Origin: a virus
Reading direction: 5' to 3' (one strand)
DNA: 64,000 nucleotides
Virus record (IMG/VR): IMGVR_UViG_3300017971_000185
Span: 186,001-250,000 of that record
The notes beneath the pieces are model-generated. The model made no database searches. It was not told where the DNA came from and saw only the letters and a list, made by a program, of their open reading frames with translations. Position numbers and translations under genes: made by a program. Below, piece by piece: positions 6,037-57,362 of this stretch (position 1 is its first letter; each line of letters starts with the position of its first letter).

Positions 6037-6073
6037 GTGACATTTGGGGCGCATAGCCCGCGCGGATAGGGCC

Positions 6074-6127: not shown

Positions 6128-6136
6128 CTTCCAAAC

Positions 6137-6601: not shown

Positions 6602-6619
6602 GCAAGGAGCACACAGGCC

Positions 6620-14251: not shown

Positions 14252-14263
14252 GCCACTAACCGG

Positions 14264-14296
14264 AAAGGGCACGAGGTACGTGCCTCGTGCCCTTTT
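14264..14296 (+). terminator. Intrinsic terminator after fibre B
   Basis: A perfect 13-bp stem, AAAGGGCACGAGG (14264-14276) with CCTCGTGCCCTTT (14283-14295), a 6-nt loop TACGTG and a following T-rich stretch. It starts 13 bases after the stop of the 2543-aa gene. This is the clearest terminator in the window. It also argues against the GTG at 14287 as a start for the next gene. Confidence 0.9.
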
Positions 14297-14328
14297 CTAA
14301 ACCCAAACCCATATCAGATCAGACCCAA

Positions 14329-14895
14329 ATGCCAACAGAACAGCAAGCCATCGAAACGGTCGTTCCCATTGATACCCTCCGAGAGCAACTCCAACAGGCG
14401 CAACACGCCGTTGCGGCGATGGAGGAATGTCTAGCCCTTGTAGCGGATCGAAAGACCGACTACCAAAAGGACATTTCTAAGTTTGAGGGGATGGTCGATG
14501 CGTTCAACCTCACCGTCAAGAAGATCGATGAGCACATCGTCGGCGTCAAACAGCTAGAGACCGCGGGTCAGTTGACGACCGAGCAGTATCGCATCGCGAT
14601 CAACTGGATCTCCGAGGTTCACGGCATCCCGAATAGCTTGGTCGAATCTGCCAAGCGCAGTGTTCTTCAAGCCGAAGGAGCCGTGACCGGTTGCACGGGA
14701 GCGATCGAAGCACTCACTGAGCGCGTCAACGAAGAGAAGGCACGAGCCCGGCAGATCGAACGAGCGATTCGCGTTGCTGAGACTGTGCTTCGCCAGGCCG
14801 AGGAATCCAAGGAAGTCGAGGCAGAGGGTACGTCCACTCCGCCTCCAGAGGAACCCGAACAGGCAAAGGAGATCACTCTTTTGCCACAGGACTGA
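14329..14895 (+). CDS. Coiled-coil protein between fibre genes (188 aa)
   Basis: I chose ATG 14329 because an in-frame GTG at 14287 lies inside the terminator stem. No good Shine-Dalgarno is visible. The sequence is Gln/Glu/Ala-rich and strongly helical, with heptad-like stretches at residues about 10-75 and 105-165, and an acidic Pro-rich tail. A coiled-coil protein encoded next to a long fibre could be a fibre chaperone, a trimerisation partner or a connector. No family is recognised. Confidence 0.72.
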   Translation: MPTEQQAIETVVPIDTLREQLQQAQHAVAAMEECLALVADRKTDYQKDISKFEGMVDAFNLTVKKIDEHIVGVKQLETAGQLTTEQYRIAINWISEVHGIPNSLVESAKRSVLQAEGAVTGCTGAIEALTERVNEEKARARQIERAIRVAETVLRQAEESKEVEAEGTSTPPPEEPEQAKEITLLPQD

Positions 14896-14901
14896 GTAGC
14901 C

Positions 14902-19869: not shown

Positions 19870-20645
19870 TCTCTGAAGCAGTATCCAACGAGCGGAATTG
19901 ATGAGTTTTGGATCTGCTCGGGGTACTGGTCCGGCTGGTTTGCAGACGGCATGCAGTGCATGTCTGGAGGACACAGGTCGTTTTGGACATCGCAATGCTC
20001 AGTGCAGCAGAGATTTGCGTTGCATACCCCGTCTGGAAAACCACCTGAGGCTAAACTAGCTCCCGTCTTGCAGCCCGAGTTTCCTTGCGTTGGATCGCCA
20101 AATTCGCCCCCAGGATCGTCGCCCGTGTAGATCTGGCACAGCCATTGGTAGCTGTCGTAGTCAGGATCCCAGCCCATGTAGGTGCAGGTTAGGGCATTGC
20201 CGCAAGGCGGCGTACCAGCATCTTCCCACAAGGGATGACAAGGCTGGTCAGGGCCAAGCGGGCCAGCACTTGTTGAGTCGGTCGTGTCTCCTGTAGTCGG
20301 GTCCTCTGTTCCTGTAGTCGGGTCCTCTGTCGGCGTATCGGAGCCGGTCTCGGTCGGCGCGTCCGTGTTGCTGTCGGACGTGTCGGTGGTCTCATCCTCG
20401 GTCGTGCCGCCTTCGGTTGTGGCCGGGTCCTCGGTGGTTTCCTCGCCGGAGCTATCTCCATCGTCAGCGCCATGTGTGGTGTCATCCCCGGTGGCGCTTG
20501 AGGAATCTTCATCTCCCGACGACGCCTCATCTTCGGTTCCGCTTTCGAGGCCGGAGTCTGTCATGTCATCGCTGGGATAGAATTCGCCGCGACAACCGAT
20601 GGTGGTTGCAAGGGCGAGAAGGGTGATGCGGAGGCCGCATTTCAT
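19866..20645 (-). CDS. Exported lipoprotein, myxobacterial type, antisense in fibre locus
   Basis: Start MKCGL is preferred because AAGGAG is then nine bases upstream; an in-frame ATG at 20651 is too close. The N-terminus is a lipoprotein signal with lipobox TTIGC (Cys18). A linker of about 110 residues rich in Thr, Ser, Asp, Glu and Gly follows, then a domain of about 125 residues with many Cys (CNANLCCTEHC). This layout is typical of surface lipoproteins of Nannocystis-like myxobacteria. It is the only minus-strand gene in the fibre locus and has its own copy of the phage motif at 20667-20694. A cargo gene acting at the host surface, for example in superinfection exclusion, is my inference. 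Confidence 0.85.
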   Translation of the reverse strand: MKCGLRITLLALATTIGCRGEFYPSDDMTDSGLESGTEDEASSGDEDSSSATGDDTTHGADDGDSSGEETTEDPATTEGGTTEDETTDTSDSNTDAPTETGSDTPTEDPTTGTEDPTTGDTTDSTSAGPLGPDQPCHPLWEDAGTPPCGNALTCTYMGWDPDYDSYQWLCQIYTGDDPGGEFGDPTQGNSGCKTGASLASGGFPDGVCNANLCCTEHCDVQNDLCPPDMHCMPSANQPDQYPEQIQNSSIPLVGYCFRD

Positions 20646-20666
20646 GGTCATTTTCTCCTTAGCCCT

Positions 20667-20694
20667 TCTACGCAGGATTCAGCCAATAGTTTAC
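20667..20694 (-). promoter_or_regulatory. Bipartite GTAAACT-N14-GCGTAGA motif, copy 1
   Basis: On the minus strand GTAAACT and GCGTAGA are separated by exactly 14 nt, followed by AAGGG and the Shine-Dalgarno of the lipoprotein gene, which starts about 20 nt further on. Seven other copies share the same spacing and orientation relative to a gene start. Promoter or leader element inferred. Confidence 0.7.
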
Positions 20695-20774
20695 ATTTCG
20701 CTCGAATTTACACGTTCCGAGACAGATTTGGAAGGTTTGTGGCGACGTTGGCGCGTGTAGGTCTGGCCGGGCCT

Positions 20775-20803
20775 AATTTTCCTATGGGCTAGCCCTCAGT
20801 GAG
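20775..20803 (+). promoter_or_regulatory. Candidate second promoter class, ATTTTCCTATGGG element
   Basis: This stretch upstream of fibre D reads AATTTTCCTATGGGC, then TAGCCCTCAGTGAG. A close match lies at 33377-33406. It includes the palindrome GGGCTAGCCC. The start codon is 25 nt downstream. A late promoter is a guess based on two strong copies only. Confidence 0.4.
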
Positions 20804-20827
20804 CCTTCGCGGGCTTTCGGAGAGCCT

Positions 20828-23800
20828 ATGGCCCAGACTCCATTTCGCCAGCCCGGCAAAGACCTTGAGGTAACGGATGGGAACGTCATCACTGGCGCCG
20901 ATGACTCCCAGGGTGGGGACCTTACTCTTGAAGGCGGGACATCCTCTAGCGGGAACAACGACGCGGGCGATGTCGTCATCCGGCCCGGCCTTCCAAATGG
21001 CTCGGGTGCTCGCGGCATCGTCAATGTCACGAACAATGGGGGTGCTGATACAGATCCAATTCTTCAACTGACTTCCGAGACGGGAGCAAATGTTGAGGAT
21101 AGTCGCTTTTTCGTAGGGACACGAGATCCCCACACAAACGTAACTGGCAACCCTGGTGATGTCTACATCACACACAACGGCACCAGTAGTACGGTCAGCG
21201 TAAACACCGGGGCCGGGGACGCTAACACGACTTGGACAGATCTGGCGGGTGGAGGGACTGGCGGAGCAGATCCGGGCATAGAGGGGGTTCTTTGGGAAGA
21301 CATCCAGTTTTACCTCGACGCTGGGGACCGTAACTCATATCCCGGTTCCGGCTCGACCATAACGGATCTGATCGCTAGCAAGAGTTGCACGCTGTATTTC
21401 GTGACTATCACGGATAGTCACATCAACTTCAACGGCGTAAGCTCCTACCTCGACACCGGCACCCTGTCCGCTGCGCTCGTGAACCTCTTCGAAACGGGCG
21501 GGACGGTCGCCGCGTGGGTTCGTGCGGAATCAGATGGGGGAGGGAACGCGGGGCGTGTGGTGTCAACGACCGGTTCCGCAGACACGAAGGGCTGGTACTT
21601 GGATGTTAACGATGAGTCGTCCGGGCTTGTTCGTTTCAGATTTGAGCAGAACAGAGGCACGACAGACACGGTCTACACGACGTTCAGGACGGTCCCGATC
21701 AACGAGTGGGCTCATGTCGTCATCACCTACGACGGCAGCGACCCCGCGACGAAATTTCCGATCGCCTACATCAACGGTGAGCTAGTTTCCTGGGATTCAG
21801 AGACGGCGGGCTCTGGTGCCATTACGAGTGACTCAGGCGAGATCCTCTTCATCGGAAATCGGTGGGGCGCCGCTAGGACGTGGGACGGCGACATCGATCT
21901 GTTCCAACTTTGGGACCGTGTTTTGTCCGCCGATGAAGTCCGTCAGCTTTATCGAGTAACCGGCGAGGACCGATTCCGGCCTAGTTTGCTCGGAGACGCT
22001 GCTTCGACTTCTACTGGCGACGCTCCTGATGTCGAAATCAAGGCAGGCCCAGGAGGAAGTACGAGCGGTGCTGGAGGAGGCATCGCGCTGACGGCAGGAA
22101 CCACGACCGCCGGCTCGGGGGGAGGCATCACGATCACGGCCCAAGACGGCACGAGCGGAGCCGGAGACGTGATCCTCAATTCGGGGACGACTTCCTCTAG
22201 CGGTGATGGAGGAATCATCTCGTTACGTCCGGGCGTTGGCGCGGGGACAAACGACGGTTATGTCGACATTGATCCCGACTGGACCGGGGATGCGGATCCT
22301 CTCCTCCAATTCACGGTCACGGGTTCTAACGTTGACAACAACACTCAGATATTCACCGGGAACCGAAACCCCGATGGCTTCGTCACGGGAGAGTGTGGTT
22401 CCCTATACCTTCGCGGCAACACCGGGTCGAGCACGCTTTACGTCAATACGAGTGGGGCAAGCCCTGGGAGCACGTGGACGGAAATCGGTGCAGGGGGCTC
22501 TGGAGCGAGCGCGGGCATCGAAGGCGTTATCTGGGGCAACAACCAATTCTACCTCGATGCCGGCGACCGCAACAGTTACGCCGGATCGGGTAACACGTGG
22601 ACGGACATCGTTGGTTCTCGCGCCGCAACGATGACCAACCAGACCATCACTGATGGTCACATCATCTGGAACGCCAGTACGACCACGGCAACGTTCACTT
22701 CCGACTCCTCCATAGAAGACATTTGGAATGGGGGCGGTACGCTCATTGCTTGGGTTCGGGCAGATAGTTTTGGTGAAAGTAGCGTCGGTCGCATCGCGAG
22801 CACGGCGAACGCAGGTAACACCATAGGATGGTACGCAGGTGTTACGTCCGCTAGCGGCAACACCTGGAAGCTCTACTTCCGTCAGAATTTCGACAACACG
22901 GATGGCGAATGGCGCACGACCTCGACGGTAAACCTCAATGAGTGGTTGTTCTTTGCCATCACCTACGACTCTAGCTCTGCCAGTAACGAACCTACGCTCT
23001 ACATCAACACGGTTCTGGACACGACCGACGAGATAACCAACCCGATTGGCGATTACGGTTCTGAATCGGGAGCGGACTTGGACATTGGTCGTGCTGGAGA
23101 CGGCTCAGGAACGTGGGGTGGCGCGATCGAAATTGTCATGCTCTATGACACGGAGTTGTCTGACGATGCGATCCGTCAGATCTACAGTGTCACGGGGCAA
23201 GATCGTTTGCGGCCGAGTTTGATGGGCGCTCCCACGACGGACGCTAGTCGACCACCACAACCCATTCAAATTATTGCGGCTGATGGTGGGGCTACAGCCA
23301 GTGACGGAGGCGCGGTCGAAATCTCGTCCGGGGCTAGCACGACTGGTGCGGGGGGTGCTGTTTCGGTCACGGGTGGCGCGTCGGAAGGCGGCACCACGGG
23401 AGGAGACATATCGATCACAGGTGGAGACGTTGCAAGCACTAACTACAGTGCAGGTGATGTCACCATTAAGGGCGGCGATCTGGACTATTCGTCCGCGATT
23501 TCCCCAAACACGGGCGGAGACGTCACCCTCGAAAGTGGTTCGTATAGCGGGACAGGTTCGGCGCAGCCAGGCGGAATCACCATCAAGACGGGGACGGGAG
23601 GAACCAACAGCGCAGCCGCTCCCGATCTTCTTCTTCAAGTTACATCCTATGCTGGAAGCAGTGCCCTTGGAGACATCATCCTTCAAGGAGGAGACAACAC
23701 CGGGACAGGCGCAGCAGGGGGAATTCAGATTCTTGCCGGAGACGCTAGTGGTGATCCGGGTGGGGGTGTCACAATCACGGCGGGCGATGGGACCGGGGTA

Positions 23801-25345
23801 GGCGCGGTTGGGGGAGCCCTTAATCTGACTTCAGGCGGCGCGAGTGCGAGTTATACGGGCACGATCAACATTGATGTTCCGGCACAGTCTGCATCAGGCA
23901 GAGGCACGGGTGACATCAACATAACCATTGGAGACACTGCCTCCAATTACGGCTCGAATCCTTCGGGCGACATCAGTCTCACGGCAGGCGATCATACGGG
24001 CACGACGGGAACCGCTCAGGCTTCCAGCATCTTTCTCACAGCCGGGGATCATGCGGGAAATGAGAACAATGCGCCACCGGGCGATATCACCCTGAGCGCA
24101 GGAGATCAAACCGGAAGTGGTCGGGGTGCTGCTGGCGGCATCTACATTTGGGCTGGAGACAAGACAGGCGGCAGCCACAGTACTACGGCGGGTGGTCAGG
24201 TAGACATCGATGCTGGCGAGGGCAGTGGGGTAGGCCCAGGAGGGGCCGTCAGCATCACTGGCGGTTTAGCTGGCTCAACTGGAACCGGCGGCGGAGTTGA
24301 CATTGATGCAGGAGGATCTGGTACGGGAGCGACAGGTACGGGGGGAACGGTTGCCATCGATGGTGGGACCTGTAATGCGACGAATGGCGCAGGAGGCCCC
24401 GTCACCATCACGTCCGGTGCCGGTGCGGGGACGGGGAATGCTGGAGCCCTTGCGCTTAGCGGCAATGACGGAGGAGCCACGTCGGGTACAGGTGGAGATG
24501 CATCTCTGGGCGGCGGTGAAGGCGGCGGCACGGGTAGGGGAGGCAACCTTTCTCTTTTCTCGGGAACGGGTGGTGCGAACGGTGCGGGCGGGACGGTGTC
24601 GATCAACGCCGGGAGTGGCGGAGCTTCCGCGGGAGCATCGGGGACGATCACGATTTCCGGTGGCGATGGAGGCTCGGCGACAGTTGCAGGGGGAGCCGTT
24701 ACCTTTGAAGGAGGGGCTGGTAACACGACCGGAGCAGGGGGTCTTGCAACGGTTCAAGGAGGCACAGCAGGAGCTTCGGGGAATGGCGGCAGCGTAGCGA
24801 TTACGGCGCAAGATGGTGCTACGAATGGGGACGGTGGCAGTGTCACTGCGACCGCTGGTGGGGGTGCTGGGACCGGTGCCGATGGGAATGTCTCTGCCTT
24901 CGCGGACGACGACGGGTCCTTCCAGCATCGCACGCAGACGACGGGGTTCGCTGGAACGCAGTGCGACCACAAGACACTCGCGCTTCAAGCCTCTACGTCT
25001 GGCACGACTGTGTTAGCCGTGCTCGGGGTTCTGAGCACGGACGGCTTGAACATGAAATTCGACGTAAAATGTACGGGTGTCCGCGACTCCAACGACTCCG
25101 ATATCATCTCGATTTTCGCTGTGCAGACGGCGTATCGGGTTGGCGGTACGGTGTTTCTCTTGACGGCTCATGTCGATCCGACTTCGGCTCCCGGCAAGCA
25201 GACGAATGGTACGATTCCCTGGACGAACATCCAACTGGCCATCAACGGAGACAACATTGAGCTTCAAGCCACGGCCACGGCTGCCACGGGCGACTGGAAT
25301 TTCTCGATAGAGTGGACGCGACAGCTTGGCGGCTACTCCTCGTAA
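20828..25345 (+). CDS. Giant fibre-like protein D with two LamG-like domains (1505 aa)
   Basis: ATG after GGAGAG. Two modules of the form GDVYITHNG or GSLYLRGNTG ending in TWT(D/E) are each followed by a concanavalin/LamG-like jelly-roll domain (21280-21990 and 22520-23220). The two copies share FYLDAGDRNSY, a GG(T/V).AWVRA strand, a NEW...ITYD strand and a closing RQ(L/I)Y.VTG.DR.RPSL. LamG folds often bind glycans or proteins, which suits receptor binding. The remaining 700 residues are Gly-rich GG.(V/I).I.(G/A)G repeats, one block of which matches fibre B. The last 140 residues are a non-repetitive tip. No signal peptide. Confidence 0.83.
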   Translation: MAQTPFRQPGKDLEVTDGNVITGADDSQGGDLTLEGGTSSSGNNDAGDVVIRPGLPNGSGARGIVNVTNNGGADTDPILQLTSETGANVEDSRFFVGTRDPHTNVTGNPGDVYITHNGTSSTVSVNTGAGDANTTWTDLAGGGTGGADPGIEGVLWEDIQFYLDAGDRNSYPGSGSTITDLIASKSCTLYFVTITDSHINFNGVSSYLDTGTLSAALVNLFETGGTVAAWVRAESDGGGNAGRVVSTTGSADTKGWYLDVNDESSGLVRFRFEQNRGTTDTVYTTFRTVPINEWAHVVITYDGSDPATKFPIAYINGELVSWDSETAGSGAITSDSGEILFIGNRWGAARTWDGDIDLFQLWDRVLSADEVRQLYRVTGEDRFRPSLLGDAASTSTGDAPDVEIKAGPGGSTSGAGGGIALTAGTTTAGSGGGITITAQDGTSGAGDVILNSGTTSSSGDGGIISLRPGVGAGTNDGYVDIDPDWTGDADPLLQFTVTGSNVDNNTQIFTGNRNPDGFVTGECGSLYLRGNTGSSTLYVNTSGASPGSTWTEIGAGGSGASAGIEGVIWGNNQFYLDAGDRNSYAGSGNTWTDIVGSRAATMTNQTITDGHIIWNASTTTATFTSDSSIEDIWNGGGTLIAWVRADSFGESSVGRIASTANAGNTIGWYAGVTSASGNTWKLYFRQNFDNTDGEWRTTSTVNLNEWLFFAITYDSSSASNEPTLYINTVLDTTDEITNPIGDYGSESGADLDIGRAGDGSGTWGGAIEIVMLYDTELSDDAIRQIYSVTGQDRLRPSLMGAPTTDASRPPQPIQIIAADGGATASDGGAVEISSGASTTGAGGAVSVTGGASEGGTTGGDISITGGDVASTNYSAGDVTIKGGDLDYSSAISPNTGGDVTLESGSYSGTGSAQPGGITIKTGTGGTNSAAAPDLLLQVTSYAGSSALGDIILQGGDNTGTGAAGGIQILAGDASGDPGGGVTITAGDGTGVGAVGGALNLTSGGASASYTGTINIDVPAQSASGRGTGDINITIGDTASNYGSNPSGDISLTAGDHTGTTGTAQASSIFLTAGDHAGNENNAPPGDITLSAGDQTGSGRGAAGGIYIWAGDKTGGSHSTTAGGQVDIDAGEGSGVGPGGAVSITGGLAGSTGTGGGVDIDAGGSGTGATGTGGTVAIDGGTCNATNGAGGPVTITSGAGAGTGNAGALALSGNDGGATSGTGGDASLGGGEGGGTGRGGNLSLFSGTGGANGAGGTVSINAGSGGASAGASGTITISGGDGGSATVAGGAVTFEGGAGNTTGAGGLATVQGGTAGASGNGGSVAITAQDGATNGDGGSVTATAGGGAGTGADGNVSAFADDDGSFQHRTQTTGFAGTQCDHKTLALQASTSGTTVLAVLGVLSTDGLNMKFDVKCTGVRDSNDSDIISIFAVQTAYRVGGTVFLLTAHVDPTSAPGKQTNGTIPWTNIQLAINGDNIELQATATAATGDWNFSIEWTRQLGGYSS

Positions 25346-37033: not shown

Positions 37034-37759
37034 ATGGAACGCGTAGGCATAGGCCCTTACAGGCCCAAGAAGCGCAAGCGGCAGCGTAGGCAGCGGGGAC
37101 AGGCCAAGCAGAAGGCCAAGATGAGCTACCGCAAGCGCAAGGGTGTCCTCAAACAGAAGGCCAAGATTCGCTATCGCCAGGTACGCAAGTCGCCTGCGTT
37201 CAAGCGAAAGAAGCGCATCTACCGGAAATTCCGCACGCGCCACAGGCGGCTCGGGACGACGGAAGAGATTATGATGCATCCGGCCGTCGAGTTTATGATG
37301 ACCCTAGACGGCGAGCGTGTCGTCGCGGGACATATCACGGGAGTCGTTGCTGACACGTGGCAAGTCGAGTACGCACTTGAGGATGGCACGATCGGTTCCA
37401 TGGACATCGATGACTTCCTCGATCAAGCAGCGTTCTTCGATGACGGCGACATCGAGTTGTTGTTTCTGATTCTCGATGAGGCTTCTTCGGTGGAAGACGA
37501 CGGCGATGAGGATGTGACCGTCTTCGAGTTTGAACCTCCCGCTGAGCCATCGGCTGAGAGAGTCGTCTTGGCCTACCAAGAGCGTCACGCCTTCAACAAG
37601 GAGTCTCCGCCCGACTTGCTCGCGCAGCTTGTGAAGGTTCTCGACAAGGCGAGCACTCAGGCTGAAGGCGATGGGCGTAAAGGACTACGAGATGCCGTGG
37701 GTCGAGTCAAGGGCATCGCCAAGATCGTGGACTCCGCCTGGACGCATCGGAGGGAGTAG
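37034..37759 (+). CDS. Protein with very basic N-terminus and acidic C-terminus (241 aa)
   Basis: The first 80 residues hold over 40 Lys/Arg (blocks such as KKRKRQRRQRGQ), a histone- or ribosomal-like tail likely to bind nucleic acid. Residues about 90-130 form a small beta domain (VVAGHITGVVADTWQVEYAL), then an acidic stretch and a helical end. No family recognised. Possible DNA condensation or structural protein; this is inference only. Confidence 0.7.
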   Translation: MERVGIGPYRPKKRKRQRRQRGQAKQKAKMSYRKRKGVLKQKAKIRYRQVRKSPAFKRKKRIYRKFRTRHRRLGTTEEIMMHPAVEFMMTLDGERVVAGHITGVVADTWQVEYALEDGTIGSMDIDDFLDQAAFFDDGDIELLFLILDEASSVEDDGDEDVTVFEFEPPAEPSAERVVLAYQERHAFNKESPPDLLAQLVKVLDKASTQAEGDGRKGLRDAVGRVKGIAKIVDSAWTHRRE

Positions 37760-37762
37760 GTT

Positions 37763-38002
37763 GTGGCGCTGCCTGCTGACGTTCGGCGGCTCTTAGCTGA
37801 GGTCGAGCGTCGGCGTCAGGCGAGACTGGAGCGTATTCGCTTCCAGAACAACAACCGTCAGTATGGTCGCTCGATCTACGGAGACTTCACCTACTATCCG
37901 AGTCAGATCGAGCCAGAGCACCATCTCAACCGGGGCATCTTGGGGCTAGACAAGATTCTCAGCGGGGTTACTCCGTGGCCTCGTTTCCCGACAATCCCAT
38001 GA
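37763..38002 (+). CDS. Hypothetical protein (79 aa)
   Basis: GTG start. Arg-rich first helix (VRRLLAEVERRRQARLERIR), then a Tyr/Asn-rich end. Stop overlaps the next start by ATGA. Confidence 0.6.
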   Translation: MALPADVRRLLAEVERRRQARLERIRFQNNNRQYGRSIYGDFTYYPSQIEPEHHLNRGILGLDKILSGVTPWPRFPTIP

Positions 38003-38136
38003 GCGCGAGCGCACAACGAGTTGCTTCCCGATACCTGCAAGATGCTCGTGTGGATCACTACGAGGTCGAGAAGTGGCTTGAGGAGGCTGGGGTGAAACCG
38101 GAAATCGCTGCTCCGTCCAAGACGGACGGCCAATGA
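37999..38136 (+). CDS. 45-residue protein with N-terminal RVA tag
   Basis: ATG in an ATGA overlap; ends by overlapping the next ATG. Starts MSASAQRVASRYLQDA, then an acidic helix YEVEKWLEEAG. The N-terminal segment matches the start of the gene at 38381 and the end of the protein at 2095. Confidence 0.6.
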   Translation: MSASAQRVASRYLQDARVDHYEVEKWLEEAGVKPEIAAPSKTDGQ

Positions 38137-38384
38137 CGCTGATGGAGCAGGGAAAGAGGGCATCCATGAAGCGAACAGCAATCGTTAAGAAGCATCCCGA
38201 ACGCGGGGTTTGGTGCCTATTCGATTCTGAGGGTAAGAAGGCGCTCAACTGTTTCAAGAATCGGTACAAGGACAAGAAGCCGCCTCAAGAGGCTATCGAG
38301 CGGGCAGAGCGCATCGTGCAATTCTACAAACACCAGGCTAAGGACATGGCGGTTCGGGTCGCAGCGAGATGGCGGGGCGAATGA
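38133..38384 (+). CDS. Hypothetical protein (83 aa)
   Basis: ATG overlaps the previous stop; an internal ATG at 38166 is possible. Pattern KRTAIVKKHPERGVWCLFDSEGKK, then NRYKDKKPPQEAIERAERIV resembles small phage proteins of unknown role. The end (AKDMAVRVAARWRGE) again carries an RVA segment. Confidence 0.65.
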   Translation: MTLMEQGKRASMKRTAIVKKHPERGVWCLFDSEGKKALNCFKNRYKDKKPPQEAIERAERIVQFYKHQAKDMAVRVAARWRGE

Positions 38385-38810
38385 CGGCGTCAGCACAGCG
38401 CGTGGCACATGCTCATCTTCTCCGCACGGGAGCCAAGGCTCTCAGCGGTAACGCGATTCGGTTGGAAGCAAGACATCAAGAAGGAGGCTGACCAGATCAC
38501 GAGAGAGATTCGCGATGGGTTTGTCAGGAAGAACACGATGAAGCTGAGTGCCATCGTGACCGGGAAAGGCAACCTGAAGAACATCGAAGTCCTGAGTTGG
38601 GCACGTAGCAACTTTGAAGGCGATATGCTGTTCACGTTCAAGGACGGATCGAGTTTCGAGGTACGCAACAAGACCGTGACCAAGATGTCGGTCAAGGGCC
38701 GGTGGTTCTCGCAGTACCCGACGACGTTCCACAAGGTAGTCATGCCGGACGGCAAGAAGATGCCTTCTCCGTCTGAGAAGCGCATGGTCCAGGTATTCGC
38801 GGCAGTGTGA
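38381..38810 (+). CDS. RVA-tagged protein, apparently frameshifted
   Basis: ATG 38381 (ATGA overlap) opens MTASAQRVAHAHLLRTGAKA and continues to a TGA at 38489-38491. The main body, from about 38480 (DIKKEADQITREIRDG) to 38810, lies in another frame, whose first ATG is 38409. The N-terminal tag resembles the gene at 37999, so the true protein probably spans both frames, with a shift near 38460-38490. The body is about 115 aa, beta-rich (FTFKDGSSFEVRNKT), with no known family. Confidence 0.6.
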
Positions 38811-41593
38811 TGGGTCGGCCGAAGTACATCGGGATCTTTCTCACGCCTCAGAGTAGGCGGGCGCTCCTGCGCACCTATCCGCCCGTCCATCCCACTGTCT
38901 ACGCCGATCACGTCACGGTGATCTACGATCCCACCGATGCCGACTTGGAGAAGGTCGAATTGGGAGAGATCGTCACGGTCAAGCCGGTAGCTCATCTGGA
39001 GGACGAAAAGGCCCAGGTGTTGAGGGTGAGCATTCCGTCCTACCTGGCTCGGCTCACCAACCGGGTGCCGCACATCACAATCTCTACGGCTCGCGGTGTT
39101 GCTCCCGTGTATGCGGGCGAGCTAGCCAAGTCGCACCACACCATGATCGCCCCGAAGCCAGGCAACTACACGGGCATCGTGGACGTGGACAAGCGTAGCC
39201 ATCCGGTGCGAACGAGGATGTTCCCGCTGGCCGCTGCTCCCAAGCACTACAAGATCGATCAGGGCGACGTTCGCAAGAAGACGCGCCGTGACAAGAAGCA
39301 GGAGCTAGAGGAGGCGAAAGACCTTGGTTTCTATTCGTACACGGTGATGAAGGTCGTTCCCATCAAGCAGGTCAAGACTCCGCCGGTCTGGAACCAAGGG
39401 CGTATCGACAGGATCAAGAAGGGGCTCGCGTCTGGGAAAGCCTTTCCGCCCATCTCTCTTGCGGGGAAGCGTCCTCCCTATGAGATCAGTGACGGCATCC
39501 ATCGGACCAACGCGAGTATCGACGCTGGCTACACGCACATCCCAGCGTACTTCACGGTGCTCGTAGAGCGCCCCGATCTCTACGAAGAGCCCGAGAAGGA
39601 GAAGCCCAAGCTACGGCCAGGTACTTGGGTCAAGATGCGCGCGTCTCGGGACGGTTTCGATTGGGCGGTTGTGATCGAGTACGTGGGTCCTCGCGTGTGG
39701 AAGGGAGTCAAGCGTCACTTGTACGGTCTCGTAGCGGGCGATACGAACAAGTCCGACTTCATCGGAGACTGGATGGACTCCGAGTTTGATCCCGTGCGGG
39801 AAGGACAAGTACCGAGGAAGGTGCGTGAGACGATTCTGGCAGACCCGTTTGCTGATCATCTTCCGCAGCGACGTGTTGCTGCTCGCCATCTCATCGCTCG
39901 TGACTATTTCGAGATAGGCGACATCATCTTGTACGGGAAGTACAAGAACAAAAAAGCACGGATTGTGGCGTGGGGCAAGGACCACAAGGGAAACCCCACT
40001 GTCGAGATTGAGCCCATCCCCAAGGGCCGCAAGAAGAACAAGACCCTCGGCCTGTTCCGCATCTGGCACGCGCTCCCGCCAGAGGAGCGGAAGAAGGAAG
40101 CGCAGGTTCGGACGGCGGAATTTTCTCCCAATTGGGATTGGCCCAACGTCCTGAAGAATGTGGCCATCTTCAACCAAATCCACAAGACGGTGAAGGGATG
40201 GACGCGCCTGAGCGACAAGGACCGAGTACCGGCGCTCCAGAAAGAAAAGCCGTTCATCGGACAACTGAAGAAGGATGTCGCGGGCGGAACCTTCCCTGGT
40301 CAATGGGAAGCAGGTTTGGCTGAGTGGCTCTATCAGTGGTGGGGATTCGAGTGCCCCAAGAAAGGCACTTCTGATCTGCTTCATCATGAGCTTTCGGTTC
40401 TGTATCGTCATGTTGCCATCGAGCCCAACAACTATTTACTCAAGAAGGATGTCGAAAATACAGCACGAGTGTTAGACACGTACTCCAAGGAGGTCAACGA
40501 CTGTCTCAAGCAAGCCGGGCCAGCGCGTCTGACCTACTCGGGGTTCAAGGTCTGGAATCCGCAGCGCATGCCCGACAAGATGATGCGCAAGCTGTTGAGC
40601 GGCGTCGATCACATCATGGCGATCTTCCGCAAACGAGGGATGGAGAAGGCGCTCACGAAAGGCGTCAAGGACATCCTCGTTCGCAAGTGGACTAGCAACG
40701 ATGGAAAGTATGTTGCCTGGTACTTCTCCCGTGAGCGCCGCATCGTCCTGACCGATGCTGTTCTCAAACCCGGCGGTGGTCGGCTCATGGATCGCTGGAT
40801 CTCCGAAGTGTTCCTCCATGAGTTTGGGCATCATGTCCACATGACGTACCTCCATCCCAACGCTAAGAAGGAATGGGATGCCGGGTGGAGTCCTGTTGAG
40901 TCGGCACGGGAGAAGGTCGAGCAAGAATTCAAGATCACCGGGAAGGACCGAAGGCGGTTCTTCGATCTCATCGAACGGAATGATTGGAGTCCGTCGAAAG
41001 CGGCACGAAAGCTCAAGGGCTTGGACAAGCTACGGTTCATGGCGTGGCTGCGCAACCCTGGTTTGGGAGAGCCCTTGATTACACCTAAGATTGTTCGGTT
41101 GACGCGTCGAGGGAAGGACGTGTTTGATTTCTTGCGGGACCCAGAGGGGCATTGGCGTCAACAACACCCTGGAGACCTGCTCAGTCATCTCCAATATGAG
41201 TCGAAGGAGCAGCAGAGAGCGGAAGAGGATGCTTATGTGGCAAAGCAAGTAGCTCAGAAGCTCCGCCGCCTTCGCAACGATGTTTTGTCTCTCGATTGGG
41301 AAGGCGCAGACAAGATTCCCCGAGCGTTGCAAGACGAGATTCGCAAAGAGGACAAGAGCGTAGACGCTGCGATAGATGCTTTGGAAGTCCCCACGGATTA
41401 TGCGAGAACGAATGAGATGGAGGACTTTGCCGAGTCTTTTGTTGCCTTCGTGGCGAACCCGGCAAAGCTCTCGGACCAGGCCAAGTTCCGCATGCAGCGT
41501 GCTCTCAGCCTCTCCGGGCTCTACGGCAAGCCGATTATGAGGCTGGCTGAGCGGGTCGCTCAGACCTGGCGTCGAAGGCAGGCCGCAGCCTAG
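38810..41593 (+). CDS. 2H phosphoesterase + ParB-like + zinc-metalloprotease motif protein (927 aa)
   Basis: ATG 38810 in a TGATG overlap; the GTG one codon earlier is an alternative. Residues 1-115 have two H.(T/S) motifs, HVTV (34-37) and HITI (88-91), spaced as in 2H/LigT-type phosphoesterases acting on RNA ends or cyclic nucleotides. Residues about 165-255 hold a ParB-like domain (YEISDGIHRTNASIDAGY). Residue 670 begins HEFGHHVH, the zincin motif, after an active-site-like helix. An internal QRRVAARHLIA and a C-terminal AERVAQTWRR carry the RVA tag. Middle parts are unassigned. Perhaps a polyprotein or an injected virion enzyme. Confidence 0.8.
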   Translation: MGRPKYIGIFLTPQSRRALLRTYPPVHPTVYADHVTVIYDPTDADLEKVELGEIVTVKPVAHLEDEKAQVLRVSIPSYLARLTNRVPHITISTARGVAPVYAGELAKSHHTMIAPKPGNYTGIVDVDKRSHPVRTRMFPLAAAPKHYKIDQGDVRKKTRRDKKQELEEAKDLGFYSYTVMKVVPIKQVKTPPVWNQGRIDRIKKGLASGKAFPPISLAGKRPPYEISDGIHRTNASIDAGYTHIPAYFTVLVERPDLYEEPEKEKPKLRPGTWVKMRASRDGFDWAVVIEYVGPRVWKGVKRHLYGLVAGDTNKSDFIGDWMDSEFDPVREGQVPRKVRETILADPFADHLPQRRVAARHLIARDYFEIGDIILYGKYKNKKARIVAWGKDHKGNPTVEIEPIPKGRKKNKTLGLFRIWHALPPEERKKEAQVRTAEFSPNWDWPNVLKNVAIFNQIHKTVKGWTRLSDKDRVPALQKEKPFIGQLKKDVAGGTFPGQWEAGLAEWLYQWWGFECPKKGTSDLLHHELSVLYRHVAIEPNNYLLKKDVENTARVLDTYSKEVNDCLKQAGPARLTYSGFKVWNPQRMPDKMMRKLLSGVDHIMAIFRKRGMEKALTKGVKDILVRKWTSNDGKYVAWYFSRERRIVLTDAVLKPGGGRLMDRWISEVFLHEFGHHVHMTYLHPNAKKEWDAGWSPVESAREKVEQEFKITGKDRRRFFDLIERNDWSPSKAARKLKGLDKLRFMAWLRNPGLGEPLITPKIVRLTRRGKDVFDFLRDPEGHWRQQHPGDLLSHLQYESKEQQRAEEDAYVAKQVAQKLRRLRNDVLSLDWEGADKIPRALQDEIRKEDKSVDAAIDALEVPTDYARTNEMEDFAESFVAFVANPAKLSDQAKFRMQRALSLSGLYGKPIMRLAERVAQTWRRRQAAA

Positions 41594-41736: not shown

Positions 41737-41764
41737 ATGCACTTTTGGTAGATTCTGGCGTAGA
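41737..41764 (+). promoter_or_regulatory. Bipartite motif, copy 3
   Basis: ATGCACT (41737-41743), 14 nt, GCGTAGA (41758-41764), then a second GCGTAGA seven bases later, and ATG 41775. Precedes the FHA gene. Confidence 0.65.
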
Positions 41765-41774
41765 GGGCGTAGAG

Positions 41775-42914
41775 ATGAAGGTTCTCAAGCTACAGATCTT
41801 CCATGGCAACGAGATGAAGGAATGGCGCACGATCGAGGACGACGTGACCAAGATCGGGACGCTCCAGTCCTCGCACATCCAGCTTGAAGGGCTAGCGCGC
41901 ATGCACGCGGTGATCGAGCGCAGCACGGACACGTTCCGGCTCATCGATCTCGGCGGCGTGCCTCCGACTTTCGTCAATGGCGAGCAGATCAGGCAGGCCG
42001 AGATTCAGAATGGCGACATGATCCACTTCGGTCGAGAGGGTCCGTGGAGTATGCGCGCGACCATCGAGACAGCCGTCGAGGTTGACGTGGACCGCAAGCC
42101 GGAGGCCCCTGACTCTTTGTCACGGGATGAGCTTTTCGAGACTTTCGCCAACGCAGCCCAACGACGCAAGGAGCGAGAGGACAAGGAGGATATTCCAGAC
42201 GATGAGCTTTTTGATCATTACTATCGCAAGTACCAACGTCGTAAGGCTCAGGAGCAAGAGCGCGAGAAGGACTCGGGGCAAGAGAAGTTGTTTGAGAGCC
42301 TGTGCGAACAGATGGAGGAGCTTGTAGAGGAGCGCTCAGAAGACCAGAAGAATGACATTACACGGATGCTTACCCAGGTGAAGTCTCTGTGGAAGAGCAA
42401 GGATCCTGAAAGAAAGCAAGATCAGATCCGACGCCTTGAGGATATTATTCAGGCTCTCAAGCAAGACAGGCAAGAGAAGGAGCAGATGGCGCACGCTTTG
42501 ATCGATGCCACGAGCCAAATCATTGCGGAAGGCACGATGGAAGAGGCGTTCAAGATCTCCGAAGAAGAGGCGCTTGAGAAAGCCGCCGATCTCGTCATGG
42601 AGGTCAGTCAGTACAAGGATGCCCTCGGTCTCCTTCAGGTGTTTTCTGGGCCAAAAGAAGGCGGAGCAGGGGACAAGAAAGTCTTTCTCAAGGGGAAACA
42701 TCTCTTGGAGAAACAATTGTCGGGGGAGGTCGCTAGAAAGAGTCTGTTCTTGAGTCTCTACATCGCGCGGGCAGGCGGCTGGACGTGGGAGCAACAACAA
42801 AAGGAAATGCTGAAAGCGCGGCGTAACCTGACTGAGGAGGAGCTTCAAGTGCTTGAAAACCATCCCGCAGTCAAGAAGGTTTTTGAAGCCATGGAGAGGC
42901 AGAGCGGTAGCTAG
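41775..42914 (+). CDS. FHA-domain protein with coiled-coil (379 aa)
   Basis: ATG 41775 chosen from its place after motif copy 3; the in-frame ATG 41745 lies inside the motif. Residues 20-95 form an FHA domain: IGTLQSSHIQLEGLARMHAV, then FVNGEQI and NGDMIHFG. FHA domains bind phosphothreonine. The usual SR.H is here AR.H. Residues about 110-260 are charged and coiled-coil, and a helical C-terminal domain follows. As myxobacteria have many Ser/Thr kinases, binding a host phosphoprotein is plausible. Confidence 0.82.
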   Translation: MKVLKLQIFHGNEMKEWRTIEDDVTKIGTLQSSHIQLEGLARMHAVIERSTDTFRLIDLGGVPPTFVNGEQIRQAEIQNGDMIHFGREGPWSMRATIETAVEVDVDRKPEAPDSLSRDELFETFANAAQRRKEREDKEDIPDDELFDHYYRKYQRRKAQEQEREKDSGQEKLFESLCEQMEELVEERSEDQKNDITRMLTQVKSLWKSKDPERKQDQIRRLEDIIQALKQDRQEKEQMAHALIDATSQIIAEGTMEEAFKISEEEALEKAADLVMEVSQYKDALGLLQVFSGPKEGGAGDKKVFLKGKHLLEKQLSGEVARKSLFLSLYIARAGGWTWEQQQKEMLKARRNLTEEELQVLENHPAVKKVFEAMERQSGS

Positions 42915-42938: not shown

Positions 42939-43613
42939 ATGCTGAAGCCGCAGGACATCGTGCATGTAGGAGGGACGCTGACCGCCGCTAGCGTGTTGGC
43001 TGCCTACCACCAAGGAGTGTTTCCTTGGTTCTCGCACGATGGCAGCGACGTGCTTTGGTGGTCGCCAGATCCTCGATTCGTGCTCGACGTGAACGAGGTA
43101 CACAGAGGGCGCACCGTTCGGAAAGCGCTCAAGAAGCTCGACTTCACGATCGACGCTGAGTTTGACCAAGTGATACAGGAGTGTGCCGACAAGCGCTATG
43201 CAGCCAGGTCTGCGATGGGAACCGATCGGACCGACACTTGGATCACTCCCCGGATGTTGAAGGTGTACCGGAAGCTCTATCGAGAAGGCTACGCGCACAG
43301 CGTCGAGGCGTGGAAGGATGGCGATCTAGTAGGTGGTCTTTACGGTCTGTGCCTGGGCAACGTGTTCTTTGGCGAGTCCATGTTTGCGCACATGCCCAAT
43401 GCGTCCAAGGCGGCTCTTGTGTTCCTTTGCGATAAGCTGAAGGAAGCGGGTGTCGGAAGGATCGATTGTCAGATGGAGACTCCGCTGATGCGCTACATGG
43501 GAGCCAAATTTGTCAGTCGGGCGCAGTTTCGAGATGGTCTCTTGTTGGGCTTGCTCACCAAGCCCACGCTCCGAGGAAAGTGGTCTGTAGATGGGTTGCC
43601 AGACGCAGAGTGA
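42939..43613 (+). CDS. aat: Leucyl/phenylalanyl-tRNA-protein transferase
   Basis: ATG after CAGGAG. The 224-aa protein is full length and shows the family pattern: GGTLTAASVLAAYHQGVFPW (start of the N domain), LWWSPDPRFVL, DTWITPRM, HSVEAW, GLYGLCLG, GESMFAHM, ASKAAL and DCQMETPLMRYMGAKFVSR. The enzyme moves Leu or Phe from tRNA to N-terminal Lys/Arg of proteins, making an N-degron read by ClpS/ClpAP. In a phage it could direct decay of host or phage proteins. It lies in the FHA unit. Confidence 0.93.
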   Translation: MLKPQDIVHVGGTLTAASVLAAYHQGVFPWFSHDGSDVLWWSPDPRFVLDVNEVHRGRTVRKALKKLDFTIDAEFDQVIQECADKRYAARSAMGTDRTDTWITPRMLKVYRKLYREGYAHSVEAWKDGDLVGGLYGLCLGNVFFGESMFAHMPNASKAALVFLCDKLKEAGVGRIDCQMETPLMRYMGAKFVSRAQFRDGLLLGLLTKPTLRGKWSVDGLPDAE

Positions 43614-46533: not shown

Positions 46534-46977
46534 GTGCGCAAACCGCACAAAGGCACCTTACGAGCACTCGCCAAACGATTCCGGGCTTGGCTCGTCACGC
46601 TTCCTCAGATCGCCTCTTTCGATGAGGATCTCTGTGGGGCGTGTGCGATTGCTTCGGATGGTCTGGCTCGCTTTCTTCGTAAAGAAGGTTTCGACGCTTG
46701 GTTTGTCGAGGGCCAGTACGTTCCTTGCGCCAACAGCACTCGGTCAGAGGACTTTTACGGTGCCGAGACCAACCATTGTTGGGTCGAGGTTGGTCGGAAG
46801 TGGATCGTGGACATCACTGCTAGGCAGTACAGTGGGCGATTCCCCGAGGTCTACATTGTGCCCACAGAGCATGAGGACTATCATAGATTCCGGCGAGGGC
46901 CGTATGCTCTTCGATGCGTGCGGCGGGAGTGGCCGAAAGACCACCATCCACTCGGTCGAAAGCTACGCATCAGGTAG
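46534..46977 (+). CDS. Transglutaminase/papain-like Cys-His-Asp protein
   Basis: GTG 46534 (or TTG 46531) chosen from its place after motif copy 5 and GAGGG; the frame is open further upstream. Motifs LCGACAIAS (C34, C37), TNHCWVEV (H81) and IVDITARQY (D93) form a catalytic triad of the transglutaminase-like superfamily in the usual order. The protein (147 aa) is one compact domain. Could be a protease, peptidase or amidase; substrate unknown. It leads the unit with the polynucleotide kinase. Confidence 0.7.
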   Translation: MRKPHKGTLRALAKRFRAWLVTLPQIASFDEDLCGACAIASDGLARFLRKEGFDAWFVEGQYVPCANSTRSEDFYGAETNHCWVEVGRKWIVDITARQYSGRFPEVYIVPTEHEDYHRFRRGPYALRCVRREWPKDHHPLGRKLRIR

Positions 46978-46981
46978 GAGT

Positions 46982-47923
46982 ATGACTGAGATTTACATGA
47001 TGGCTGGCGTGCCGGGTTCGGGCAAGAGCACGGAAGTCAAGAAGTTGCCGCCGCACGTTTACCTGAGCCGGGACAAGGAAGGCGGCAAGGTTTTGAGCTT
47101 GCTTCCGAAAATGCATAAGGCGATTGCGGACGGGGCCGAGATCATCGTGCTCGACTGTACTTTCCTTTTGCCTGAGCACCGTGAGCCCTTTCTTCAAGCC
47201 GCGGAAAAGGCTCAGGTGCCGGTTCATCTCAAGTTTCTCGATGTCAGTAAGGAACAGGCTCAATTCAACTTGTGCTGGCGCATGTGCGAGCGCTACGGGC
47301 ACGTGCTGCGGTCCGAAGAGATGGACGAGTACAAGCACGATCCAAACATGTTCCCGCCGACTGTTCTGTTCGGATGGTTCAAGAAAATGGTGCGGCCTCA
47401 GTATGCTGAGGGTTTCGATTCGGTCGAGGTCATCAAGATCGGGCGCTGGCCTTTGCCTTCTGAATTCAAGAACAAGGCGTTCATCGTGGATTACGACGGG
47501 ACGGTACGGGAGACCAAGAGCGGAGAGATCTACCCGACTGATCCCTCCGACGTGCGAGCACTCCCACAGGCGGCTGAGAAACTCCAGAAGATAGCCAAGG
47601 AAGGAAGGCTGTTGCTTGGAGCGAGCAATCAGTCTGGTGTCGCCAAGGGTCTTCTGACCATGGAGACGGCCAGGGCATGTTTCGAGGAGGCCAATCGCCA
47701 GCTTGGCGTAGACATCGAGTATGCCTTCGACTACAGTCGGTCTGGGCCGATCACTTCCTGGCACCGAAAGCCCATGCCGGGAATCGGGGTAGACTTCATC
47801 TGGAAGCATCGGCTGGACCCGAGCCAGTGTGTTTTTGTGGGCGACATGACTTCGGACGAGACCTTCGCCCAGCGATGCGGTTTCCAGTTTGAGTGGGCAA
47901 AGGATTTCTTCGGACATGAATGA
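46982..47923 (+). CDS. Polynucleotide 5'-kinase / 3'-phosphatase
   Basis: ATG after TAGGAG. The N-terminal kinase half has a P-loop GVPGSGKST (residues 9-17), YLSRD (28-31) and the R..RYGHVL lid region; the C-terminal half is a HAD phosphatase with IVDYDGTVRET (D170, D172), LLLGASNQSG, HRKPMPGIG and VFVGDMTSDE. This domain order and the 313-aa length fit animal-type and phage PNKP-like enzymes that mend DNA or RNA ends. In a phage it could repair tRNA or nicked DNA. No RNA ligase gene is seen in the window. Confidence 0.88.
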   Translation: MTEIYMMAGVPGSGKSTEVKKLPPHVYLSRDKEGGKVLSLLPKMHKAIADGAEIIVLDCTFLLPEHREPFLQAAEKAQVPVHLKFLDVSKEQAQFNLCWRMCERYGHVLRSEEMDEYKHDPNMFPPTVLFGWFKKMVRPQYAEGFDSVEVIKIGRWPLPSEFKNKAFIVDYDGTVRETKSGEIYPTDPSDVRALPQAAEKLQKIAKEGRLLLGASNQSGVAKGLLTMETARACFEEANRQLGVDIEYAFDYSRSGPITSWHRKPMPGIGVDFIWKHRLDPSQCVFVGDMTSDETFAQRCGFQFEWAKDFFGHE

Positions 47924-55919: not shown

Positions 55920-56110
55920 CGCTCAGCTACCGTACTCCGAAATCTACTCAAAGGTAAGCATCGGATTCGAGGCTGTGCCGGTCTCGCCTTGGCGGCGATG
56001 CTCCGGTAGTGAGCCTCCGGCCTGACGGTTCAGGCGCCTTGGTATGAGTCCTGCGGAACTGTCCCGACGACGCCGGTATCGCCCTCGCAGCAACTCCCCC
56101 ACGTCTCGGT
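55920..56110 (-). ncRNA. Putative omega/reRNA at the 3' end of tnpB
   Basis: In IS605/IS1341 elements a guide RNA overlaps the tnpB 3' end and runs to the right end. Here the last 170 bases of the gene and 24 bases beyond hold short inverted repeats (for example CCTGAA/TTCAGG-type and GGCGG/CCGCC pairs). No guide boundary can be fixed from one sequence. Confidence 0.3.
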
Positions 56111-57362
56111 GATGATCGTCGAGACCGACCTGTTCGTCCTGAGAACGTCTCAGCAGGTTGATCCCTCCCACCACGTCGGCATGAGAACGTCTACCGCAAC
56201 TGCGGCAGACGAAATCGATTCCTGATCGGTTCCGTCGAGAAACGTAACCACAGGAGGGGCAAGTCTGGGACGTGTACGCCGGGTTCACCTTGATCACCGC
56301 TGCCTTCGTCTCCAAAGAGTGGGCCAAGGCCCGGTAGGCGAACCTCTTCTGTCCCCGACATCCTTGAAGGTCGAGATCTTCGATCACGAACACGGTGCCC
56401 TTCGGCGCATCACGGACCAGCTTGTTCGCCGTCTCTCCCGTGATGGTTTTCACCATCCCGGTGAGCTTCGACTCCAAGCGGTCGAGCCGAGGGCTGTTCT
56501 CCTTGAAACCTTGGCGCTGTCGGTTCGCACGAAGGTTCCTGACGCGTTCGTAGAGCCTGTCGAATTTGGGTTTGAGGTCGGCACCGAACGTTCGGCCGTC
56601 AGACGTGGCCGCCACCACGTTCAGGCCGACATCGACACCGATTTTAGGAGCATCTGGCTGAGGCTCGGGGACGACCCACTCCTTCTTCTCGACAACCTCG
56701 AACCGCCATCGGCCCCGCTTGTCCTTGCGAGCGTGGACTCCCTTCGACACGTCCGAAGAGGACCCGACGTAAGGATTTCCGTTCAGCGGAAGCCAGATGA
56801 CTTTCCGGCTGACCAACGTGGAGATCTTGATCCACATCGGAGCCATCGCAGCTTCGTTGGCGTCGGCCAGCGTGCAGGTGTTCTCCGACATCCGCATGGG
56901 GATACGGTCAGACACTCTCGGCGGGTTCCCGGAGACCTCGGGGTCGAGGAGAAGTTTCCAGTAGGCGTCGATGGCTTCCTGGGTGACATGCTTCCAAGGA
57001 ACGGAGATCAGGTGCTTGCCCACGGTGCAGAGGGCATGTCGCTCATCTTGGGAGATCTGGCCGAACCTATGGAGACGGGTGAGGTGCTTCTTGATGGCAC
57101 GCTCGTAGGTTGCCTTGGCCCAGGTACTTACGATCTGGATGGCGTGGTCTCGTGCGTTCTTCTGGATCTGGGACGTGAGCTTTTCAGCCTTTGGGAAGAA
57201 GGCTTGTTTCTTGGACCGCTTGAGGTTGAGCCTCCGGCCATCGAACATCGCCTGCACGCAAATACGGACGTACTTGACGTACTCCACATGCAGGGCCTCC
57301 AGGGCAGCGACCTTGCCTTGGTTGGTCTCCGGGTGGAGATAGAGGTGGCGTGACTTCTTCAC
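55944..57362 (-). mobile_element. tnpB: TnpB, IS200/IS605-family RNA-guided nuclease
   Basis: GTG 57362, 472 aa. RuvC-type catalytic residues are all present: GVDVGLN (D244), FVIEDLDLQG (E328) and HADVVGGINL (D396), with the zinc ribbon CPSCG...CRSCG (C368, C371, C386, C389) between the last two. The N-terminal part is the usual TnpB helical and beta-barrel region. TnpB is a programmable DNA nuclease that helps the element persist. No tnpA is nearby, so it is a lone TnpB (IS1341-like). It lies between a zinc-ribbon gene and a minus-strand operon. Confidence 0.92.

What the first reader, a model, noticed from the sequence alone, without database searches (positions are those of the whole stretch)
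38810..41593. One protein with 2H phosphoesterase, ParB-like and zinc-protease motifs
The combination of an RNA-end or cyclic-nucleotide enzyme (HVTV/HITI), a ParB-like DGIHR domain and HEFGHH in 927 residues is new to me. The 2H domain could remove cyclic-nucleotide immune signals, and the protease could mature the polyprotein or attack a host target.
Basis: partly seen in the sequence, partly recalled or inferred. Interest (0 to 1): 0.72.

Follow-up and report, generated by a model that had tools for sequence, protein, structure and literature searches.

The report
Modular huge-phage polyvalent protein
A 497-kb bacterial virus carries one large protein built from several enzyme-like parts (an RNA-end 2H domain, a ParB-like domain and a zinc protease) that related viruses make partly as separate proteins, so it is an unusual version of a known class of multi-tool phage proteins thought to be injected into the host with the viral DNA.

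Summary
38810-41593 is one intact 927-codon gene of a 497-kb phage record, with HVTV/HITI, DGIHR and HEFGHH where stated. Relatives show a mosaic. Residues 5-107 are a 2H domain whose standalone relatives in crAss-like and Lak phages match the fungal tRNA-ligase phosphodiesterase family. 136-345 is a ParB/sulfiredoxin-fold domain, separately encoded in 416- and 529-kb phages. 354-430 is an SH3/KOW-like module that opens multi-enzyme proteins in other huge phages. 545-918 is a zincin, a separate 452-497-aa gene elsewhere (38-46% identity); its predicted structure puts HEXXH and a distal Glu on two helices. The combination is not alien: 2H, ParB and zincin are catalogued in phage "polyvalent proteins" (PMC5512222), and this phage has a second one (2H, zincin, CCA transferase) directly behind terminase and portal. 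I read it as a virion-packaged, processed polyvalent protein whose 2H domain heals RNA ends; the phage also encodes KptA/Tpt1 and polynucleotide kinase-phosphatase. Packaging, cleavage and catalysis are untested; the 2H fold was not modelled confidently. Most novel side finding: a short RVA(A/S/T)R(Y/F/W/H) peptide, strongly enriched at N-termini and module junctions; a possible packaging or cleavage tag.

The parts
38810..41593 (+). 927-aa polyvalent protein (2H - ParB/Srx - SH3/KOW-like - helical - zincin)
38822..39130 (+). 2H phosphoesterase-like domain, residues 5-107, HVTV (34-37) and HITI (88-91)
   Evidence: tblastn/blastp to crAss 135-aa protein E 3e-7; all 5 family members match PF08302 tRNA_lig_CPD, P0001 itself only E 0.014; AF2 inconclusive
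39215..39565 (+). ParB/sulfiredoxin-fold domain, residues ~136-252, DGIHR 228-232
   Evidence: 43-51% identity to standalone L066/L067; AF2 pLDDT 85-92 over ~180-250; Foldseek Noc/ParB/sulfiredoxin prob 1.00, E 7.5e-5
39602..39844 (+). segment 265-345 conserved with the ParB domain in standalone relatives
   Evidence: L066 219-aa protein covers 136-339; L102 35%
39872..39889 (+). RVAARH peptide, residues 355-360, at the junction before the SH3/KOW-like module
   Evidence: family-wide enrichment
39869..40090 (+). SH3/KOW-like beta module, residues 354-427
   Evidence: 55-68% identity in 10 IMG/VR contigs; AF2 strands, Foldseek Tudor/chromo SH3-like prob 0.97, not significant by E-value
40442..41563 (+). 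zincin metallopeptidase domain with helical lead-in, residues 545-918; HEFGHH 670-675, EDFAE 871-875
   Evidence: 37-46% identity to separate 452-497-aa genes; zinc-ligand motifs conserved in 13 zincins; AF2 HExxH and EDFAE on two helices; BFVD matches to jumbo-phage peptidases
38409..38810 (+). upstream 133-aa ORF, stop overlaps the start of the 927-aa gene (TGATG)
38133..38384 (+). 83-aa ORF with C-terminal RVAARW
37999..38136 (+). 45-aa ORF beginning MSASAQRVASRYL
37034..37759 (+). 241-aa Arg/Lys/Tyr-rich protein, paralogue of a 694-aa protein at 30.7 kb of the same genome that starts MADPKRVAARYL
   Evidence: E 2e-8
46622..47923 (+). polynucleotide kinase plus 3'-phosphatase (context for RNA repair; listed ORF start, true start probably further downstream)
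   Evidence: PF13671 E 3.8e-9, PF08645 E 8.5e-8

Best explanation
The gene encodes a phage polyvalent protein: a mosaic of modules that kin phages encode partly as separate genes. It is most likely made late, packaged in the head, and enters the host with the DNA. The C-terminal zincin most likely processes the chain (its own or sister polyvalent proteins) at the linkers between modules, releasing the 2H domain, the ParB-like domain and the SH3/KOW-like module as working parts. The 2H domain most likely opens 2',3'-cyclic phosphates left on tRNA by host ribonucleases, leaving a 2'-phosphate that the phage's own KptA/Tpt1 can remove and working beside its polynucleotide kinase-phosphatase. The ParB-like part is probably a nucleotide-binding or nuclease domain, not a partition protein. 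Shown by computation: the open frame, the relatives of each module, the ParB fold, the zincin active-site layout, a sister polyvalent protein behind the portal gene, KptA and PNKP in the genome. Inferred: packaging, injection, cleavage, all catalytic activities and the repair pathway.
For: All three enzyme-like domains are named components of polyvalent proteins, with zincins the commonest (PMC5512222). The ParB subfamily recurs in proteins that also carry zincin and bona fide polyvalent markers: L085, 2354 aa, RadC plus LPD1 'large polyvalent protein-associated domain' plus HExxH plus ParB; L079, 1423 aa, HExxH sites plus ParB. Other huge phages fuse 2H with zincin (L036, 599 aa) and 2H, CCA transferase, two zincins, the SH3/KOW-like module and topoisomerase IB (L042, at least 2261 aa). 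The same genome has a 1510-aa 2H/zincin/CCA-transferase protein and a 1015-aa double-HExxH protein directly after terminase-like and portal-like genes. Zincin site: HEFGH and EDFAE conserved and placed on two helices after a three-stranded sheet. ParB fold: Foldseek prob 1.00. 2H nearest PF08302. KptA E 2e-49; PNKP.
Against: The 927-aa gene itself lies about 220 kb from the portal cluster, next to an endolysin and small unknown genes, not beside structural genes. No record holds the full four-module order, so the fusion rests on one metagenomic contig. No RNA ligase was found: Rnl1, RtcB, PF09414 and PHROG 2659 gave none beyond a NAD-dependent DNA ligase (the Rnl1 and PHROG searches have weak or no positive controls). 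No Macro domain. The published authors argued that polyvalent 2H domains are not repair partners of RNA ligases. The 2H fold was not modelled with confidence (pLDDT below 50).
Confidence: 0.55

Rival explanations
1. Polyvalent protein whose 2H domain destroys nucleotide immune signals (cyclic oligonucleotides, 2'-5' oligoadenylate) on entry, as the first reader and the 2017 authors suggest for polyvalent 2H domains; the zincin matures it or cuts a host target.
For: The authors of PMC5512222 prefer a signal-degrading or RNase role because these 2H domains never accompany RNA ligases; no RNA ligase was found here either. Some polyvalent 2H domains of kin phages (L036) match the Acb1 model, E 3.5e-5.
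Against: P0001's 2H gave no Acb1 or LigT match; its family matches the tRNA-ligase CPD model. KptA and PNKP point to RNA-end chemistry.
Confidence: 0.2
2. The zincin is an effector aimed at a host protein rather than a processing enzyme, and the modules stay joined.
For: Some polyvalent zincins are carried uncleaved (N4 virion RNA polymerase, TraC1, ArdC). In kin phages the homologous zincin is a separate gene, so it need not act in cis.
Against: Several zincin paralogues per phage sit next to and inside polyvalent proteins with recurrent linkers, which fits a processing role.
Confidence: 0.25
3. The ORF is a one-off or artefactual fusion of neighbouring genes (assembly or recent accident) without a joint function.
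For: No full-length relative in IMG/VR, INPHARED or 26 related records; kin phages encode ParB, SH3/KOW and zincin in separate genes, sometimes in one genome far apart (G009, G018).
Against: One uninterrupted frame with even codon-position composition through all junctions; several similar but not identical fusions in other huge phages.
Confidence: 0.1
4. A plasmid- or phage-partition ParB with accessory domains.
For: ParB-N fold match to Noc and ParB; PHROG label 'ParB-like partition nuclease' E 0.012.
Against: Only the ParB-N/sulfiredoxin core is present; no credible helix-turn-helix (PF13592 below cut-off) and comparable similarity to sulfiredoxin and serine kinase folds.
Confidence: 0.03

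Closest known systems
Polyvalent proteins (Iyer et al. 2017, PMC5512222)
   Same: Several unrelated enzyme domains in one chain; 2H, ParB-like and zincin are all listed components; a zincin at one end; kin proteins carry LPD1, RadC, topoisomerase IB and CCA-transferase parts.
   Different: This four-module order was not found elsewhere; an SH3/KOW-like module and an RVAxR(Y/F/W/H) peptide mark the modules; the 2H is of the tRNA-ligase CPD kind, whereas the paper describes other 2H fusions (MuF, portal).
Phage P1 DdrB
   Same: ParB-like domain followed by a C-terminal zincin in a head-packaged, processed protein (PMC5512222, PMC9024508).
   Different: Adds 2H and SH3/KOW-like modules; no sequence-level membership test against DdrB was run.
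Fungal tRNA ligase (Trl1) cyclic phosphodiesterase domain, PF08302
   Same: Closest family of the 2H domain and of its standalone crAss/Lak phage relatives.
   Different: Not fused to kinase or ligase; P0001 alone scores 15.3 bits against a cut-off of 23.
Capsid targeting sequences of T4 internal proteins and P1 DarB
   Same: Short N-terminal signal shared by otherwise unrelated internal head proteins (PMC9024508) is what the RVAxR peptide resembles in position and distribution.
   Different: Different sequence; no packaging experiment; also occurs internally and at C-termini.
M34-like / minigluzincin metallopeptidases
   Same: HEXXH plus Glu on a later helix; BFVD matches include phage PaBG 'putative peptidase' and an Erwinia phage 'family M34' protein.
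   Different: Similarity is to the catalytic core only (PDB profile E 0.003 at best; PDB fold matches not significant); nothing suggests a toxin role.

Membership tests
Polyvalent protein | two or more biochemically disparate domains in one polypeptide of a mobile element | tested here: met
Polyvalent protein | domains drawn from the described repertoire, found in variable combinations | tested here: met
   catalogue; variable combinations
Polyvalent protein | late or virion-gene context | tested here: inconclusive
   sister protein directly behind terminase-like and portal-like genes; the 927-aa gene itself is about 220 kb away, next to motif-bearing small ORFs and a basic protein
Polyvalent protein | packaged in the virion and injected | not testable with these tools
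   needs virion proteomics
Zincin metallopeptidase | three-stranded sheet, helix with HEXXH, later helix with zinc-binding Glu | tested here: met
   AF2 strands 268-272, 283-286, 291-295, helix 304-327 with HEFGHH, helix 516-529 with EDFAE, block pLDDT 81-93 except 61 at 301-310 (model residue = protein residue minus 353); conservation
ParB/sulfiredoxin superfamily | alpha+beta fold with conserved Arg in the active-site pocket | tested here: met
   fold by Foldseek prob 1.00; Arg of DG.HR conserved in most relatives (Lys in L085, Ser in L025)
DdrB-like ParB | extra helix with conserved Tyr and Asp/Asn at the end of strand 2 | not tested
   no DdrB sequence was compared
2H phosphoesterase superfamily | two HxT/S motifs | tested here: met
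   HVTV 34, HITI 88, both conserved in crAss, Lak, DAC19 and L065 relatives
2H phosphoesterase superfamily | 2H fold | tested here: inconclusive
   AF2 pLDDT below 50 in most of residues 1-156
PF08302 tRNA_lig_CPD | score above the curated cut-off | tested here: not met
   P0001 15.3 bits against 23; crAss relative 23.4 passes; all 5 members match at E <= 0.05
Anti-CBASS Acb1 | match to the Acb1 profile PF23474 | tested here: not met
   one search lists no match at E <= 10
Partition ParB | ParB-N followed by helix-turn-helix | tested here: not met
   only ParB-N/Srx core; PF13592 15.2 bits, cut-off 25

The most novel reading that the evidence does not exclude
Huge phages use a portable peptide, RVA(A/S/T)R(Y/F/W/H) often followed by L, at N-termini and inter-module junctions as a common head-packaging and/or cleavage tag for a large set of internal proteins (2H, ParB-like, zincin, SH3/KOW-like, topoisomerase IB, CCA transferase, basic DNA-binding-like proteins), so that any module can be delivered alone or fused, with the zincins cutting the fused forms.
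Probability: 0.35. Interest if true: 0.75.

Novelty: new variant of a known kind. Interest (0 to 1): 0.5.

Why it matters
It ties an odd-looking multi-motif protein to a known class and shows how it is put together from modules that sister phages encode separately, which gives clean single-domain constructs for assays. If the shared RVAxR peptide is a packaging or cleavage signal, it would mark the injected protein set of many huge phages straight from sequence and offer a way to list their early host-takeover and counter-defence proteins. The 2H/KptA/PNKP set makes an NAD-dependent tRNA-end healing pathway in a huge phage testable.

Tried and rejected
Full-length and domain-wise single-sequence scans of IMG/VR found nothing for the whole protein, the zincin alone or the 2H alone; the SH3/KOW-like module was the way in. 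Pfam, PHROGs, NCBIfam and PDB sequence search with P0001 alone gave only weak hits or none. A 2H profile against PDB gave chance matches. A genome-contig scan with the 2H family found no relative. Several alignments misplaced the short 2H relative against the ParB part, so the 2H half of the second model was in effect single-sequence and failed. The PF09414 hit at 160 kb is a NAD-dependent DNA ligase. Partition ParB was rejected for lack of a DNA-binding domain. Most polyprotein papers found were about animal RNA viruses and not relevant.

Full report
OBSERVATION. The window is 186001-250000 of a 497,194-base virus record. The ORF at 38810-41593 is open for 927 codons, starts in a TGATG overlap with the ORF before it, and has the same codon-position composition in every segment. 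The three together never arose in 5000 shuffles, though HExxH alone did in 5%, so the motifs by themselves were a weak argument; the relatives below are the strong one.

RELATIVES SHOW A MOSAIC. No record searched holds a full-length relative. Single modules do have relatives. (a) Residues 354-430: a small beta module at 55-68% identity, at the head of 1700-3100-aa multi-enzyme proteins of huge phages and in front of zincins in L048 and L032. (b) Residues 545-918: a zincin at 37-46% identity, a separate 452-497-aa gene in L034, L035, L037 and G018; in L034 and L035 it follows directly a second zincin gene. (c) Residues 136-339: ParB-like domain plus about 80 residues, a separate 219-aa gene in a 416-kb phage (43% over 136-339, 51% over the core) and a 272-aa gene in a 529-kb phage (35%). 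(d) Residues 5-107: a 2H domain, standalone in crAss-like phages (E 3e-7 pairwise), Bacteroides phage DAC19, Lak megaphages and L065. In one genome (G018) the zincin and the SH3/KOW-zincin genes are about 76 kb apart; in G009 the ParB gene and an SH3/KOW gene are about 162 kb apart.

DOMAIN TESTS. Zincin: AlphaFold2 on residues 354-927 with 18 sequences, mean pLDDT 72.6, puts HEFGHH in one helix and EDFAE in another after a three-stranded sheet, the published definition of these peptidases. The motif residues are conserved across the 13 zincins aligned. Fold matches in PDB were not significant (best peptidase jannalysin, prob 0.63); in BFVD they were to jumbo-phage peptidases. ParB: pLDDT 85-92 over residues 180-250, Foldseek to Noc, ParB and sulfiredoxin with prob 1.00, E down to 7.5e-5. 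2H: fold not modelled (pLDDT below 50), so it rests on the two conserved HxT motifs and on family matches to PF08302: all five members match, best E 1.3e-7, P0001 itself E 0.014 and below cut-off. SH3/KOW-like: strands as expected, best fold matches Tudor/chromo/SH3 with prob 0.97 but E 0.4.

THE SETTING. In the same genome, at 444-460 kb, come a terminase-like gene, a portal-like gene interrupted by an intein-like insert, a 1510-aa protein (LigT-type 2H, zincin, CCA-type nucleotidyltransferase), a 1015-aa protein with two HExxH sites and a topoisomerase-IB-like protein (CCA transferase E 2.5e-19 and LigT E 0.006; terminase, portal, intein and topoisomerase by reading the sequence, not by family match). 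Comparable mixtures occur in other huge phages: L042 (2H, CCA transferase, zincin, SH3/KOW-like module, zincin, topoisomerase IB, the last three kinds by reading and by the searches that fetched them) and L036 (2H plus zincin). The ParB subfamily also sits in L085 with RadC and LPD1, a Pfam domain named after large polyvalent proteins.

A SHARED PEPTIDE. RVA(A/S/T)R(Y/F/W/H) stands at residue 355, before the SH3/KOW-like module, which is where the corresponding kin proteins begin. In 297 non-redundant ORFs from the 33 loci fetched with a zincin profile that does not contain it, [RK][VI]AxR[YFWH] occurs 33 times (0.8 expected from shuffled proteins, maximum 4), in the first 45 residues of 16 proteins (0.09 expected), mostly starting at residues 5-14. 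It begins separate zincin, ParB, SH3/KOW, topoisomerase and basic proteins and recurs at module junctions and C-termini. In the window it is confined to the 37999-41593 gene group, apart from chance antisense frames, beside a basic protein whose 694-aa paralogue begins MADPKRVAARYL. Shuffling removes ancestry, so related proteins count more than once; but the carriers are unrelated folds. A packaging or cleavage role is inference, by analogy with the capsid targeting sequences of T4 and P1 DarB (PMC9024508).

HOW IT MOST LIKELY WORKS. Polyvalent proteins are predicted to be packaged and injected, with zincins doing the processing (PMC5512222). I adopt this for the 927-aa protein. For the 2H domain I prefer RNA-end healing: it is nearest to the tRNA-ligase cyclic phosphodiesterase family, and the phage encodes KptA/Tpt1 (E 2e-49) and a polynucleotide kinase-phosphatase in the window. 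The 2H-then-KptA route has been described for jumbo phages (PMC7824862, PMC9503650). Against this, no RNA ligase or Macro domain was found, and the 2017 authors favoured RNase or signal-degrading roles. Steps shown: gene, modules, folds of two domains, genomic partners. Steps inferred: packaging, cleavage, chemistry, pathway.

NOVELTY. Known kind, new variant: the exact architecture and the CPD-type 2H in a polyvalent protein were not found elsewhere in the data searched. The RVAxR peptide is the part I could not match to anything described in the papers read; the library was not searched for the peptide itself.

Noticed in passing
L093 (G000:444000-460000), 3476-6940: Portal-like gene carries an intein-like insert (starts CLLPGCLVWVRRKG, ends HTGGGLLLHN before C); L007/L022 show a similar insert inside a CCA-transferase protein.
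   Followed up: no
L095 6037-6642 (G000:369 kb): KptA/Tpt1 RNA 2'-phosphotransferase in the phage, PF01885 E 2e-49, among many short ORFs.
   Followed up: partly
window 42939-43613: Leucyl/phenylalanyl-tRNA-protein transferase (Aat, PF03588 E 1e-62) in a phage, which could relabel proteins for N-end-rule degradation; next to an FHA-domain protein (41745-42914).
   Followed up: no
L094 6699-8780 (G000:30.7 kb) and window 37034-37759: Paralogous Arg/Lys/Tyr-rich proteins, protamine-like in look; the larger has N-terminal RVAARYL and a possible SWIM-type zinc finger.
   Followed up: partly
L028 and L029 (Lak phages), about 4.2-7.7 kb: The CPD-type 2H gene of Lak megaphages is followed, one gene further on, by an ORF that looks like an ADP-ribosyltransferase (YHGS...), by eye only.
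   Followed up: no
window 6620-25345: Three giant ORFs (2543, 1655, 1505 aa); no PHROG match for two, a match to phrog_31148 (unknown function) for the third.
   Followed up: no
window 55944-57362 (-): Transposase-like ORF (phrog_12300 E 6.5e-28) inside the huge phage.
   Followed up: no
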